A stretch of DNA of 64,000 nt, from assembly GCF_011317445.1 (NCBI RefSeq), contig NZ_JAAAPL010000002.1, positions 620,001-684,000 of the forward strand, written 5' to 3'. The DNA is from Chelativorans multitrophicus. GTDB lineage: Bacteria > Pseudomonadota > Alphaproteobacteria > Rhizobiales > Rhizobiaceae. The notes under the pieces are model-generated. The model saw only the letters and a program-made list of their open reading frames with translations, did not search any database and was not told where the DNA came from. Position numbers and translations under genes: made by a program. This document shows, piece after piece, positions 38,089 to 40,238 of the stretch (position 1 is the stretch's first letter; every line of letters begins with the position of its first letter).

Positions 38089-39495
38089 TTATTCGGCAGC
38101 CGCGCGGGTCGGAACACCAAGCCAGTCGCTGCAATCGGCAAGAGCCCGCGCGGTGATCGCGCGCTTCTTTGCAAGCGTCTTTTCCTTGCCGCGCAGGCGC
38201 TTCCCCTCCGGTTTCGGCAGTTCGACCGGCGGGAAAAGTCCGAAATTCACGTTCATCGGCTGGAAGGAGCGCTTGCCCGGCTCGTCCTCGGACAGGATAT
38301 GGCCGCCGGTAATGTGGCTGATGAGCGAGCCGAAGGCCGTGGTGGCCGGAGGGGGCATCATCTTCCGTCCAAGGCGTGCAGCGGCTGCAAAACGCCCGGC
38401 CATGAGTCCCATGGCCGCGCTTTCCACATAGCCCTCGCAACCGGTGATCTGGCCGGCAAAGCGCAGGCCGGGCCGTGATTTCAGCTGCAGCGTGATGTCG
38501 AGCAGGGCGGGGGAGTTGATATAGGTGTTGCGGTGCAGGCCGCCGAGCCGGGCGAACTCCGCGTTTTCCAGTCCGGGTATCATGCGGAAAATACGCACCT
38601 GCTCGGCATATTTCAGCTTCGTCTGGAAGCCGACCATATTGTAGAGCGTGCCCAGCGCATTGTCCTGCCGCAACTGCACGACGGCATAAGCCTTTTCGTC
38701 CGGCTTGTGTGCGTTTGTCAGGCCCATGGGCTTCATCGGGCCATGGCGCAGCGTCTCGGGCCCGCGCTCGGCCATTACCTCGATGGGCAAACAGCCGTCG
38801 AAATAGGGCGTTCCCTCCCACTCCTTGAAGGCGGTCTTTTCGCCGTCGAGGAGCGCCTGTACGAAAGCTTGGTACTGCTCCTTGTTCATGGGGCAGTTGA
38901 TATAATCCTTGCCGGTGCCGCCGGGGCCAGCCTTGTCATAGCGCGACTGGAACCAGCAGGTGTCCATGTCGATCGTGTCGAAATGCACGATCGGTGCGAT
39001 GGCGTCGAAGAAGGCCAGCGCCTCCGCTCCCGTCTCCTGGCGGATTGCCTCGGCGAGCGACGGCGCGGTGAGCGGGCCTGTAGCGATGATCGTCTGATCC
39101 CATTCGGAGGGCGGGAGACCGGCCACTTCCTCGCGCACCACCGTGATCAGCGGATGGCCGTGGATTGCCTGCGTCACCGCGTCCGAGAAGCCGTCTCGAT
39201 CGACCGCAAGCGCGCCGCCTGCCGGCACCTGATTGGCATCTCCCGCGCGCATGATGAGCGAACCTGCCAGGCGCATCTCCGCGTGCAGCAGTCCGACGGC
39301 GTTGGTCTGCGCATCGTCCGAGCGAAATGAGTTGGAGCAGACAAGCTCCGCCAGGCCGTCCGTCTTGTGGGCGTCGGTGCCGCGCACGGGACGCATTTCG
39401 TGGAGGATGACCGGCACGCCTGCCTCCGCCGCCTGCCAAGCCGCTTCCGAACCCGCGAGCCCGCCGCCAATGACATGAATGGGTTTTGTCGTCAT
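38089..39495 (-). CDS. trmFO: FADH2-dependent tRNA (uracil-54-C5)-methyltransferase TrmFO
   Basis: A 468-residue flavoprotein that uses methylenetetrahydrofolate to make ribothymidine at position 54 of tRNAs. The FAD-binding loop is [19 protein letters not shown] at the N-terminus; the family pattern continues with [26 protein letters not shown]. Further family segments are [35 protein letters not shown] and [23 protein letters not shown] 39495 is chosen because it begins the Rossmann motif; the frame is open to 39570. It lies just beyond the terminator of the DUF1127/stem-loop unit and probably has its own promoter in the short gap. Confidence 0.93.
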
Positions 39496-39570: not shown

Positions 39571-39608
39571 AAAACAACACCCGCCGGGGGAGGAGGTCCG
39601 GCGGGTGT
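39571..39608 (-). terminator. Stem-loop 1: intrinsic terminator with CCTCCTCCC loop
   Basis: On the minus strand ACACCCGCCGG (39608-39598), loop ACCTCCTCCC, CCGGCGGGTGT (39587-39577), then TGTTTTTT reading down to 39569. Stem 11 bp perfect. This is the last of three loops sharing CCTCCTCCC and ends the DUF1127/small-RNA unit. Confidence 0.8.
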
Positions 39609-39687
39609 CGTTTTGATCGACCGGCGTTTCGGGAGGAGGAGAAAGCCGGCCGTTTATCCGTCGAGACGGGAGGAGGATATCTCGACG
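39577..39687 (-). ncRNA. Candidate Cuckoo/CcsR-type small RNA array (three CCUCCUCCC stem-loops)
   Basis: Three consecutive hairpins on the minus strand directly downstream of the DUF1127 stop. Loop 3 (nearest the gene): stem CGTCGAGA/TCTCGACG (39680-39687, 39659-39666). Loop 2: CCGGC/TTTC pairs with GAAA/GCCGG and one bulged base (39621-39649). Loop 1: the 11-bp terminator hairpin (39577-39608). The plus-strand word GGGAGGAGG occurs at 39668-39676, 39631-39639 and 39588-39596, always in the loop, so the RNA displays CCUCCUCCC. Known Cuckoo RNAs of Rhodobacter (CcsR1-4) have this motif in loops and lie downstream of a DUF1127 gene. Confidence 0.75.
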
Positions 39688-39702
39688 AAACTCTTAATTG
39701 TG

Positions 39703-39843
39703 CTAGACCGACTTGCGGGCCAGGTAGGGGATGTCGCTGCGGGCGATCCCAAGATCGCTGAGTTCGCGGTTGGAAAGGCGGCTCAGCTCGTTAACCGTCT
39801 GCCGGTAACGGCGCCAGTTACGATAGGTGCGCATCAGGTTCAT
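39703..39843 (-). CDS. DUF1127 small protein (46 residues)
   Basis: MNLMRTYRNWRRYRQTVNEL then SRLSNRELSDLGIARSDIPY and LARKSV: the YRQTVNELSRLSNRELxDLGIxRxDI pattern is the DUF1127 core. It is a tiny, highly basic arginine-rich protein. In Rhodobacter sphaeroides the equivalent protein (CcaF1) sits upstream of the CcsR small RNAs and behaves as an RNA-binding regulator; in rhizobia related proteins affect RNA turnover and phosphate and carbon metabolism. Here it precedes three CCUCCUCCC stem-loops on the same strand with only 15 bases between its stop and the first stem, so the RNAs would be processed from its 3' untranslated region. Confidence 0.88.
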   Translation of the reverse strand: MNLMRTYRNWRRYRQTVNELSRLSNRELSDLGIARSDIPYLARKSV

Positions 39844-39885: not shown

Positions 39886-39915
39886 TAGATAGTCTCGGCC
39901 GAGGGCGAGGGGAAG
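39886..39915 (-). promoter_or_regulatory. Candidate RpoH-like promoter for the DUF1127/stem-loop unit
   Basis: On the minus strand CTTCCC (39915-39910), 17 bases, then CTATCTA (39892-39886), 42 bases before the ATG. It resembles the RpoH pattern of CTTG near -35 and CYTAT near -10, but only CTT is kept of the -35. In Rhodobacter the CcsR unit is driven by RpoHI/RpoHII. The match here is partial. Confidence 0.3.
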
Positions 39916-40153
39916 TGCGATTGTTGCATGGCAGCATTGCAAATTGTGCATCGCACCATACATCCGCCACAGAGCCGCCAGGAAGCGGCTGGGCGCCGCC
40001 ATCTTCCTTAATGCCGAACATGCCGGGAAAGCGGCGACCCAAAGGCGAGCCCGAATGCGCCAGAGGAAAAAGCCGCCTGAAGGCAAATTTCCTTTGATAG
40101 CCGCAGCCCAGATGATATAGAACCCCGCGCTTTCGAGGGGCGCCAGCCTCGAA
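39916..40153. other. Non-coding stretch between the DUF1127 promoter and tRNA-Leu
   Basis: Together with the upstream leader this gives about 310 bases without a gene. I see no believable ORF; short frames here lack ribosome sites. A TTGCA/TGCAA inverted pair (around 39924-39942) may belong to the control of the DUF1127 unit. Confidence 0.3.

Positions 40154-40238
<85 letters not shown>

What the first reader, a model, noticed from the sequence alone, without database searches (positions are those of the whole stretch)
39577..39687. Cuckoo/CcsR-like small-RNA array downstream of a DUF1127 gene, with three CCUCCUCCC loops
Seen directly: three consecutive hairpins on the minus strand, each with the same 9-mer in the loop (CCTCCTCCC; plus-strand GGGAGGAGG at 39588, 39631 and 39668), while the stems differ in sequence. 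The last hairpin has an 11-bp perfect stem and six T residues. The DUF1127 gene starts 156 bases upstream of the first stem. Established knowledge: Rhodobacter sphaeroides CcsR1-4 (Cuckoo RNAs) carry this loop motif and are co-transcribed with a DUF1127 gene (ccaF1), under heat/oxidative sigma factors. Inference: CCUCC equals the anti-Shine-Dalgarno sequence of 16S rRNA, so the RNAs may bind ribosome sites of target messengers. Conserved loops on unrelated stems point to selection on the loop. Here three loops form one processed 3' end rather than four two-hairpin RNAs, a variation worth describing.
Basis: partly seen in the sequence, partly recalled or inferred. Interest (0 to 1): 0.88.

Follow-up and report, generated by a model that had tools for sequence, protein, structure and literature searches.

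The report
Three-loop regulatory RNA behind DUF1127 gene
The three look-alike hairpins are a known type of bacterial small regulatory RNA (alpha-r14, the NfeR1 type) that here appears to be made as the tail of a small-protein gene, and the conserved switch upstream suggests that one regulator turns on both the protein and the RNA.

Summary
In detail: three minus-strand hairpins (39689-39571) carry identical CCTCCTCCC loops just behind a 46-aa DUF1127 gene. They form an Rfam ar14 RNA (90 bits; cut-off 58.8): the published alpha-r14/NfeR1 family, whose standard form is three such hairpins. So the "variation" is the family norm, and DUF1127 plus cuckoo RNA is published as the CIN1 locus. Comparison adds: (1) 16 of 16 genus genomes keep DUF1127-ar14; stems covary, loops hold. 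(2) DUF1127 has upstream a near-copy of the published VtlR/LsrB site, exactly 32 nt before a sigma70-like -10 in 16 of 16. (3) ar14 RNAs behind DUF1127 have no such site of their own (0 of 35 unnamed, 0 of 34 named), while 22 of 27 stand-alone genus copies do. (4) In Sinorhizobium meliloti the same trmFO-linked locus holds an ar14 with the published NfeR1 promoter marks. Best reading: a VtlR/LsrB-switched DUF1127 mRNA whose 3' UTR is an anti-Shine-Dalgarno RNA, silencing mainly uptake-transporter mRNAs. Expression and binding are untested.

The parts
39924..39942 (-). dyad TTGCA-N9-TGCAA containing CAATGCTGCCATGCA (39925-39939): predicted VtlR/LsrB (LysR-type) site
   Evidence: 1 mismatch to the published VtlR motif CAATGCAGCCATGCA (motif seen in a passage of PMC12595884); the only exact hit to CAATGCNGCCATGCA in the own genome; a version with 1-4 mismatches stands before the linked DUF1127 in 16 of 16 genus genomes
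39910..39915 (-). -35-like CTTCCC
   Evidence: read from sequence; CTTC or CTTT 9 nt after the site in 14 of 16 genus genomes
39887..39892 (-). -10-like CTATCT; predicted start about 39880
   Evidence: read from sequence; [CT]TAT[CTG]T exactly 32 nt after the site in 16 of 16 genus genomes; the start site is inference
39703..39843 (-). DUF1127 gene, 46 aa
   Evidence: Pfam PF06568, 65.2 bits, cut-off 23.3
39572..39695 (-). ar14 (alpha-r14/NfeR1-type) RNA in the predicted 3' UTR of DUF1127
   Evidence: Rfam RF02344, 90 bits, gathering 58.8, model 1-123 of 123
39657..39689 (-). hairpin 1, loop CCTCCTCCC at 39668-39676
39618..39652 (-). hairpin 2, loop CCTCCTCCC at 39631-39639
39571..39614 (-). 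hairpin 3 with terminator form, loop CCTCCTCCC at 39588-39596, then T run
38089..39495 (-). trmFO, downstream neighbour; conserved landmark of the locus
   Evidence: NCBIfam NF003739 and TIGR00137; TrmFO found within 74 of 80 named loci and 14 of 15 genus loci searched
40154..40238 (+). tRNA-Leu, upstream neighbour, opposite strand

Best explanation
The locus is a two-output operon. A LysR-type regulator of the VtlR/LsrB kind binds the dyad at 39924-39942 and recruits RNA polymerase to the sigma70-like promoter; transcription from about 39880 to 39572 makes a roughly 310-nt RNA that encodes the 46-aa DUF1127 protein and ends in an ar14 RNA. The ar14 part acts, after processing or as the 3' UTR, as a trans-acting anti-Shine-Dalgarno RNA: any of its three CCUCCUCCC loops pairs with extended GGGAGGAG ribosome sites and blocks translation, above all of uptake-transporter mRNAs. 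Shown by sequence here: family membership, covariation, conserved linkage, conserved promoter architecture, absence of a second site before the linked RNA. Inferred: regulator identity, co-transcription, processing, targets. Taken from papers on relatives: anti-SD silencing by NfeR1, LsrB activation of nfeR1, VtlR activation of a small DUF1127 gene.
For: Rfam ar14 at 90 bits. DUF1127-ar14 linkage, same strand, 33-49 nt from the end of the Pfam match to the RNA, in 16 of 16 genus genomes. Covariation: 95.4% of cells paired, 131 cells with change on both sides against 31.4 in shuffles, 0 of 500. Site upstream of DUF1127: 15 of 16 linked genus genes within 3 mismatches of the published motif, against 0 of 14 unlinked genus genes whose upstream DNA was held; exact published consensus GCAT-N3-TG-N3-T on either strand 60-130 nt before DUF1127 in 63 of 80 named loci against 26 of 4000 shuffles. 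Fixed 32-nt spacing to the -10 in 16 of 16. Own site (consensus or dyad) 25-75 nt before the RNA: linked copies 0 of 16 genus, 0 of 19 family, 0 of 34 named; stand-alone genus copies 22 of 27 after setting aside 10 weak two-hairpin hits (22 of 37 with them); in the named loci with ar14 5' of DUF1127, the nearer ar14 33 of 35. The genome has trxB, a LysR-type gene and an ar15 (AbcR) RNA in that order, with an exact GCAT-N3-TG-N3-T 46 nt before the ar15 RNA. GGGAGGAG-N3-10-ATG: 36 sites against 10 for the reversed control; 9 of 22 ORFs are uptake-transporter parts against 1 of 13 for a control ribosome site (Fisher one-sided p 0.039).
Against: No RNA or binding data for this organism. The window's own site misses the exact consensus GCAT-N3-TG-N3-T by one base, as do 5 more of the 16 genus members. 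The dyad also fits TGC-N11-GCA, a form ascribed to NtrC in PMC10746234. Beyond the genus the site is less tied to the RNA: within 3 mismatches in 20 of 31 linked and 5 of 29 unlinked family genes, and the looser dyad is as common before unlinked (20 of 29) as before linked (21 of 31) family genes, so the site follows the short DUF1127 gene rather than the RNA. Stand-alone ar14 outside the genus often lack the site: 10 of 38 in the family set have it, and only 1 of 33 of the farther ar14 in the named two-ar14 loci. 11 of 80 named relatives keep DUF1127, 10 of the 11 with the dyad, but show no ar14 over the cut-off. The target test is small; its control pattern is itself little enriched (25 sites against 12 reversed).
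Confidence: 0.7

Rival explanations
1. The RNA is an independent transcript, like NfeR1, with its own promoter inside the DUF1127 gene; the DUF1127 neighbour is incidental.
For: NfeR1 has its own promoter (PMC10746234 passages); the genome's C9 copy (L002) has a dyad 43 nt before the RNA. A plain sigma70 promoter inside the gene was not searched for.
Against: No site 25-75 nt before the linked RNA in 0 of 16, 0 of 19 and 0 of 34 cases, while a site stands before DUF1127 in 16 of 16.
Confidence: 0.15
2. A CcsR1-4-type locus: stress-sigma (RpoH) promoter, with RNase E and the DUF1127 protein maturing the RNAs, as for ccaF1-CcsR in Rhodobacter.
For: Same gene order and loop; a CcsR-like locus (DUF1127 gene followed by eight loops) exists in the class (L331). 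Processing by the DUF1127 protein could still be shared.
Against: One RNA of three hairpins, not several of two; a VtlR-type site and CTTCCC-N17-CTATCT upstream, which L331 lacks. RNA binding by the 46-aa protein is untested, and DUF1127 proteins of Agrobacterium and Salmonella were described as protein-binding (PMC12501420 passages).
Confidence: 0.12
3. The upstream dyad is bound by NtrC or another dimeric regulator rather than VtlR/LsrB.
For: TGCA-N9-TGCA is contained in TGC-N11-GCA, and NtrC represses nfeR1 from such a site (PMC10746234 passages).
Against: The published VtlR motif comes from promoters of the same gene kinds (small DUF1127 genes, abcR); in the S. meliloti locus the TGC-N11-GCA element (L213 982-998) is separate from the exact VtlR consensus (1036-1048).
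Confidence: 0.15
4. Only a transcription terminator and 3' stabiliser for the DUF1127 mRNA; the loops have no trans role.
For: Hairpin 3 with its T run has terminator form, and ar14 lies at the end of the unit.
Against: A terminator needs one stem, not three; loop columns are near-invariant while the stems drift with compensation. The DUF1127 leader has no GGAGG to pair with in cis.
Confidence: 0.07

Closest known systems
alpha-r14 / NfeR1 (Rfam RF02344 ar14)
   Same: Three hairpins with identical CCUCCUCCC loops and hypervariable stems, full-length model match (family description in passages of PMC10746234 and PMC7143759). In S. meliloti 4H41 the same DUF1127-trmFO locus holds an ar14 with the published NfeR1 marks TGCA-N6-GCAT and TGC-N11-GCA upstream.
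   Different: NfeR1 is a stand-alone transcript with its own site, by my inference 5' of DUF1127; here the RNA is 3' of DUF1127 with no site of its own.
CcsR1-4 with ccaF1 (Rhodobacter cuckoo RNAs; CIN1 locus)
   Same: DUF1127 gene directly upstream and RNAs in its 3' UTR (PMC10253847, PMC8625941 passages); shared loop motif (recalled, and seen in the CcsR-like locus L331).
   Different: Four RNAs and an RpoHI/RpoHII promoter there (PMC10253847); one three-loop RNA and a VtlR-type site here. CcaF1 has 71 aa, the protein here 46.
AbcR1/AbcR2 (ar15)
   Same: Anti-SD RNAs with transporter targets; AbcR1 activated by VtlR/LsrB (PMC8844928 and PMC7486931 passages; PMC7486931 also reports no LsrB effect on the S. 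meliloti AbcRs).
   Different: Separate Rfam family; the genome has one ar15 elsewhere, next to the LysR-type gene.
VtlR-activated small DUF1127-type gene atu1667 (Agrobacterium)
   Same: Small gene directly bound and activated by VtlR (PMC7486931 section 9); its product is called a small hypothetical protein orthologous to BAB1_0914, which other papers class as DUF1127.
   Different: That paper has no mention of NfeR1 or DUF1127 (counts 0) and none of 'ar14'; I did not look at the atu1667 3' UTR itself.

Membership tests
ar14 / alpha-r14 (RF02344) | Covariance-model score over the curated cut-off | tested here: met
   90 bits against 58.8, positions 1-123
ar14 / alpha-r14 (RF02344) | Three hairpins, each with CCUCCUCCC unpaired, stems variable | tested here: met
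ar14 / alpha-r14 (RF02344) | LsrB-type site directly upstream of the RNA (a trait of NfeR1, not of the Rfam model) | tested here: not met
ar14 / alpha-r14 (RF02344) | Silences mRNAs by pairing with ribosome sites | not testable with these tools
   Only target prediction: 9 of 22 against 1 of 13 uptake transporters
Cuckoo RNA family / CIN1 locus | 2-4 hairpins with conserved loop, no sequence conservation in helices | tested here: met
   definition from passages of PMC4504443
Cuckoo RNA family / CIN1 locus | Short DUF1127 gene associated with the RNA | tested here: met
   16 of 16 genus genomes
CcsR1-4 / ccaF1 | Several RNAs behind one DUF1127 gene, two hairpins each (two hairpins: from the finding and L331) | tested here: not met
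   One RNA with three hairpins; contrast L331
CcsR1-4 / ccaF1 | RpoH-type promoter | tested here: inconclusive
   CTTCCC-N17-CTATCT with a VtlR-type site; looked at by eye, no RpoH model and no expression data
CcsR1-4 / ccaF1 | RNase E and DUF1127-dependent maturation | not testable with these tools
   needs RNA data
VtlR/LsrB regulon | Published site GCAT-N3-TG-N3-T / CAATGCAGCCATGCA before the gene | tested here: inconclusive
   One mismatch in the window by either form; exact GCAT form in 10 of 16 genus and 63 of 80 named loci
VtlR/LsrB regulon | Regulator gene at trxB-lysR-abcR | tested here: met
   TrxB over the NCBIfam cut-off, a LysR-type protein (best model E 5e-47, none over its cut-off) and ar15 in this order on C8; identified by neighbours, not by comparison with VtlR itself

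The most novel reading that the evidence does not exclude
VtlR/LsrB is a master switch of anti-Shine-Dalgarno RNAs: besides AbcR and NfeR1 it drives, unseen, ar14 RNAs hidden in the 3' UTRs of its small DUF1127 target genes. Within one conserved trmFO-linked locus, evolution has wired the same RNA either as a free gene with its own site (Sinorhizobium, Shinella) or as the tail of the DUF1127 mRNA (this genus, Brucella/Ochrobactrum group, Aurantimonas), so loss of the regulator also removes a transporter-silencing RNA that studies of the protein alone would miss.
Probability: 0.4. Interest if true: 0.7.

Novelty: new member of a known kind. Interest (0 to 1): 0.45.

Why it matters
The RNA itself is a known type. 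LsrB with NfeR1, and VtlR with small DUF1127 genes, are each in print; what I did not find in the papers I could read is that the two meet in one transcription unit. If true, deleting a DUF1127 reading frame is not the same as deleting its 3' UTR, and part of what VtlR/LsrB does that abcR and DUF1127 proteins do not account for could come from a hidden RNA. The prediction can be tested in every genus that has this locus.

Tried and rejected
Genome-wide search for CAATGCNGCCATGCA with 2 mismatches as a regulon finder: 101 hits against 11 reversed; by eye many look like GC-rich coding matches, so it was not used beyond the single exact hit. TTGCA-N9-TGCAA over the genus: 42 sites in 14 of 16 genomes (each listed twice), 9 of them at ar14 or DUF1127 loci by my reading; the other sites were not annotated. 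The dyad alone was a poor test for stand-alone ar14 outside the genus (4 of 38 family, 8 of 68 named); adding the published consensus showed that the nearer of two ar14 has it (33 of 35) and the farther does not (1 of 33). I first read the promoter of the CcsR-like locus L331 as RpoH-like; a recount gave CTTG-N23-CCTATAT, too wide for that, so this contrast was dropped and the CcsR rival raised from 0.10 to 0.12. A claim that three loops are new was dropped on reading PMC10746234. Cis pairing with the DUF1127 ribosome site was rejected because the predicted leader has no GGAGG.

Reading limits: the papers on cuckoo RNAs, CcaF1 and Agrobacterium DUF1127 genes (PMC4615179, PMC8034643, PMC7585064) were not held, and Robledo 2017 was seen only as a citation, so 'not in print' cannot be claimed; the listings (25 of 35 shown) show no paper joining VtlR/LsrB, DUF1127 and ar14/NfeR1. 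Of the papers used I saw passages only (PMC10746234, PMC7143759, PMC10253847, PMC4504443, PMC5596092, PMC12595884, PMC12501420, PMC11975290, PMC8844928, PMC8625941), abstract and passages (PMC12218461), or sections 9, 10 and part 1 of 14 plus abstract and passages (PMC7486931).

Rows dropped or limited: family tables list 150 rows each and more exist, so linkage in 43 of 56 genomes with listed ar14 rows (61 searched; 35 of 56 within 150 nt) is not a full count; of 64 genus DUF1127 rows 30 had upstream DNA held (16 linked, 14 unlinked), of the family rows 60; of 42 genus ar14 rows not linked, 37 were held at the time. 30 of 36 GGGAGGAG sites were fetched, of which 7 had no ORF of 60 aa and one was a duplicate, leaving 22; 25 control sites gave 13 ORFs. 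The linked ar14 row of G047 is out of register and was kept.

Full report
1. Observation. The minus strand folds into three hairpins with the 9-mer in each loop, far more stable than shuffled sequence (z -7.5). The gene upstream is a 46-aa DUF1127 gene, ATG 39843, stop codon ending at 39703. The next gene downstream is trmFO; a tRNA-Leu and the trigger-factor gene lie upstream on the other strand.

2. Identity. Rfam calls 39572-39695 (minus) ar14, RF02344, at 90 bits against a cut-off of 58.8. This is the alpha-r14 family of NfeR1, described as three hairpins, each with the identical CCUCCUCCC anti-Shine-Dalgarno motif and with very different stems (PMC10746234 passages; PMC7143759 passages). 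[quoted passage not shown] So both the RNA and its neighbour gene are in print as types. The papers that defined the cuckoo family and CcaF1 were not held.

3. Conservation. Each of the 16 genus genomes has one ar14 row within 150 nt on the 3' side of a DUF1127 match, same strand, 33-49 nt from the end of the Pfam match (58 ar14 rows, 64 DUF1127 rows). In the family sample 43 of 56 genomes with listed ar14 rows have one within 1000 nt 3' of DUF1127, 35 of 56 within 150 nt; 61 genomes were searched and both lists are cut at 150 rows. On 34 distinct linked RNAs, 95.4% of cells are paired (shuffles 84.0%), 25 of 31 pairs show a change on both sides, and 131 cells are compensatory against 31.4 in shuffles, 0 of 500; sliding the partner by 1-3 columns drops pairing to 29-46%. 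The invariant columns are mainly those of the loops. In a class-wide sample drawn outside the family, 0 of 189 other genomes pass the cut-off and 8 of 189 have weak hits; that search used stricter filters and held only two genomes of the same order among those listed.

4. Promoter. Upstream of DUF1127 the window reads TTGCAATGCTGCCATGCAA (39942-39924), with 14 of 15 bases of the VtlR motif CAATGCAGCCATGCA reported for Brucella (PMC12595884 passage). It holds the only exact hit to CAATGCNGCCATGCA in the own genome. In all 16 genus genomes a version with 1-4 mismatches stands before the linked DUF1127 gene, exactly 32 nt before a -10-like [CT]TAT[CTG]T, with CTTC or CTTT 9 nt after the site in 14. 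Within 3 mismatches it is found before 15 of 16 linked and 0 of 14 unlinked genus genes (14 of 48 unlinked could be examined), 20 of 31 linked and 5 of 29 unlinked family genes; composition shuffles reach this in about 0.4%. The looser dyad TGCA-N9-TGCA (one mismatch) does not separate linked from unlinked family genes (21 of 31 and 20 of 29) and occurs before 2 of 14 unlinked genus genes. So the site follows the short DUF1127 gene, and linkage to the RNA is confounded with that. The published consensus GCAT-N3-TG-N3-T (PMC7486931 section 14) lies 60-130 nt before the gene in 63 of 80 named relatives against 26 of 4000 shuffles, and in 10 of 16 genus members; the window itself misses it by one base.

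5. One switch or two. Counting the exact consensus or the dyad 25-75 nt before the RNA, ar14 RNAs directly 3' of DUF1127 have no such site: 0 of 16 (genus), 0 of 19 (family), 0 of 34 (named). Stand-alone genus copies have it in 22 of 27 cases once 10 weak two-hairpin hits are set aside (22 of 37 with them; shuffles 39 of 1350). In the named loci with ar14 5' of DUF1127, the nearer ar14 has it in 33 of 35 cases and the farther in 1 of 33; in the family set of other ar14 it is 10 of 38. So linked copies seem to depend on the DUF1127 promoter, while not every stand-alone copy has the site. The regulator is probably present: trxB, a LysR-type gene and an ar15/AbcR RNA lie in that order on contig C8, as described for vtlR (PMC7486931 passage), with an exact consensus site 46 nt before the ar15 RNA. 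The own stand-alone copy on C9 (L002) has TTGCACGGCTGCTATGCAA 43 nt before it.

6. Positional orthology with NfeR1. TrmFO is a neighbour in 74 of the 80. In S. meliloti 4H41 (L213) the order is ar14, ar14, DUF1127, with trmFO in the same 3-kb locus; before the second ar14 lie TGCA-N6-GCAT at -71 to -58 and TGC-N11-GCA at -115 to -99 counted from the Rfam match, within a base or two of the places published for the LsrB and NtrC elements of nfeR1, plus an exact VtlR consensus at -61 to -49 (PMC10746234 passages). The published CTTAGAC-N17-CTATAT was not found there exactly. I infer that this RNA is NfeR1 and that the window's RNA is its positional counterpart with a different wiring.

7. Contrast with CcsR. 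A genome of another family in the class (L331) has a longer DUF1127 gene followed by eight loops, seven CCTCCTCC and one CTCCTCCC, mostly in pairs, which looks like a CcsR1-4 locus. It has no exact VtlR consensus or dyad in about 250 nt upstream (best motif match 4 mismatches). Its promoter type is open: CTTG stands 23 nt before CCTATAT, too far for the RpoH-like reading that I first gave it. So gene order and loop are shared, RNA architecture and upstream site differ.

8. Targets. NfeR1 silences transporter and ntrB mRNAs by pairing at ribosome sites (PMC10746234 passages). In the own genome GGGAGGAG-N3-10-ATG occurs 36 times against 10 for the reversed pattern. Of 22 distinct ORFs of at least 60 aa among 30 fetched sites, 9 are uptake-transporter parts by Pfam (L276, L285, L286, L289, L290, L295, L296, L298, L304). 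With a control ribosome site (GAAAGGAG; 25 sites against 12 reversed) it is 1 of 13 (L308); Fisher one-sided p 0.039. This is weak support in the expected direction.

9. Verdict. The finding is a real, conserved small RNA of a known family in a known gene neighbourhood. The useful addition is the regulator: sequence evidence that DUF1127 and its ar14 tail form one VtlR/LsrB-type unit, and that the locus is the counterpart of the nfeR1 locus. In the VtlR papers that I saw in part (PMC7486931, PMC12595884) I met no such RNA behind the DUF1127 genes, and the listings of five searches show no paper joining these; key papers were unread, so priority is open. Interest 0.45 for what is shown, 0.7 for the bold reading.

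Noticed in passing
L005 1501-1617 (own genome C1:1366782-1366898) and L076-L079, L082, L083, L175-L177 (L080 similar): A two-hairpin RNA with CCTCC(TCC) loops lies 17-56 nt behind a phasin-like frame in 10 genus genomes (an eleventh has the RNA without the frame being found); ar14 scores are only 31-49 bits. Only the L005 frame was tested: Phasin_2, PF09361; the others are alike at the C-terminus. A second anti-Shine-Dalgarno-type 3' UTR.
   Followed up: partly
L331 (G097:C1), DUF1127-like frame about 1028-1246, loops about 1264-1640 on the reversed strand: A CcsR1-4-like locus outside the family: DUF1127 gene followed by eight CTCC-type loops, mostly in pairs, without the VtlR-type site.
   Followed up: partly
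L003 1501-1618 and L004 1501-1621 (own C13 and C11): Two more ar14-like copies in the own genome share AATTGTGCATTGCAATATC just upstream, a different element from the VtlR-type dyad; L003 lacks CCTCCTCC in its middle hairpin.
   Followed up: no
L066 / L021 (G001:C1:402900-403540): Three ar14 RNAs in tandem, about 260 nt apart; two of them have a box-like TGCA-N9-TGCA 38 nt upstream.
   Followed up: no
L325 (own C9:734528): A sigma-70-family gene that looks like rpoH (name from recall; Pfam Sigma70_r2 and r4) has the control ribosome site GAAAGGAG, not the ar14-complementary one.
   Followed up: no
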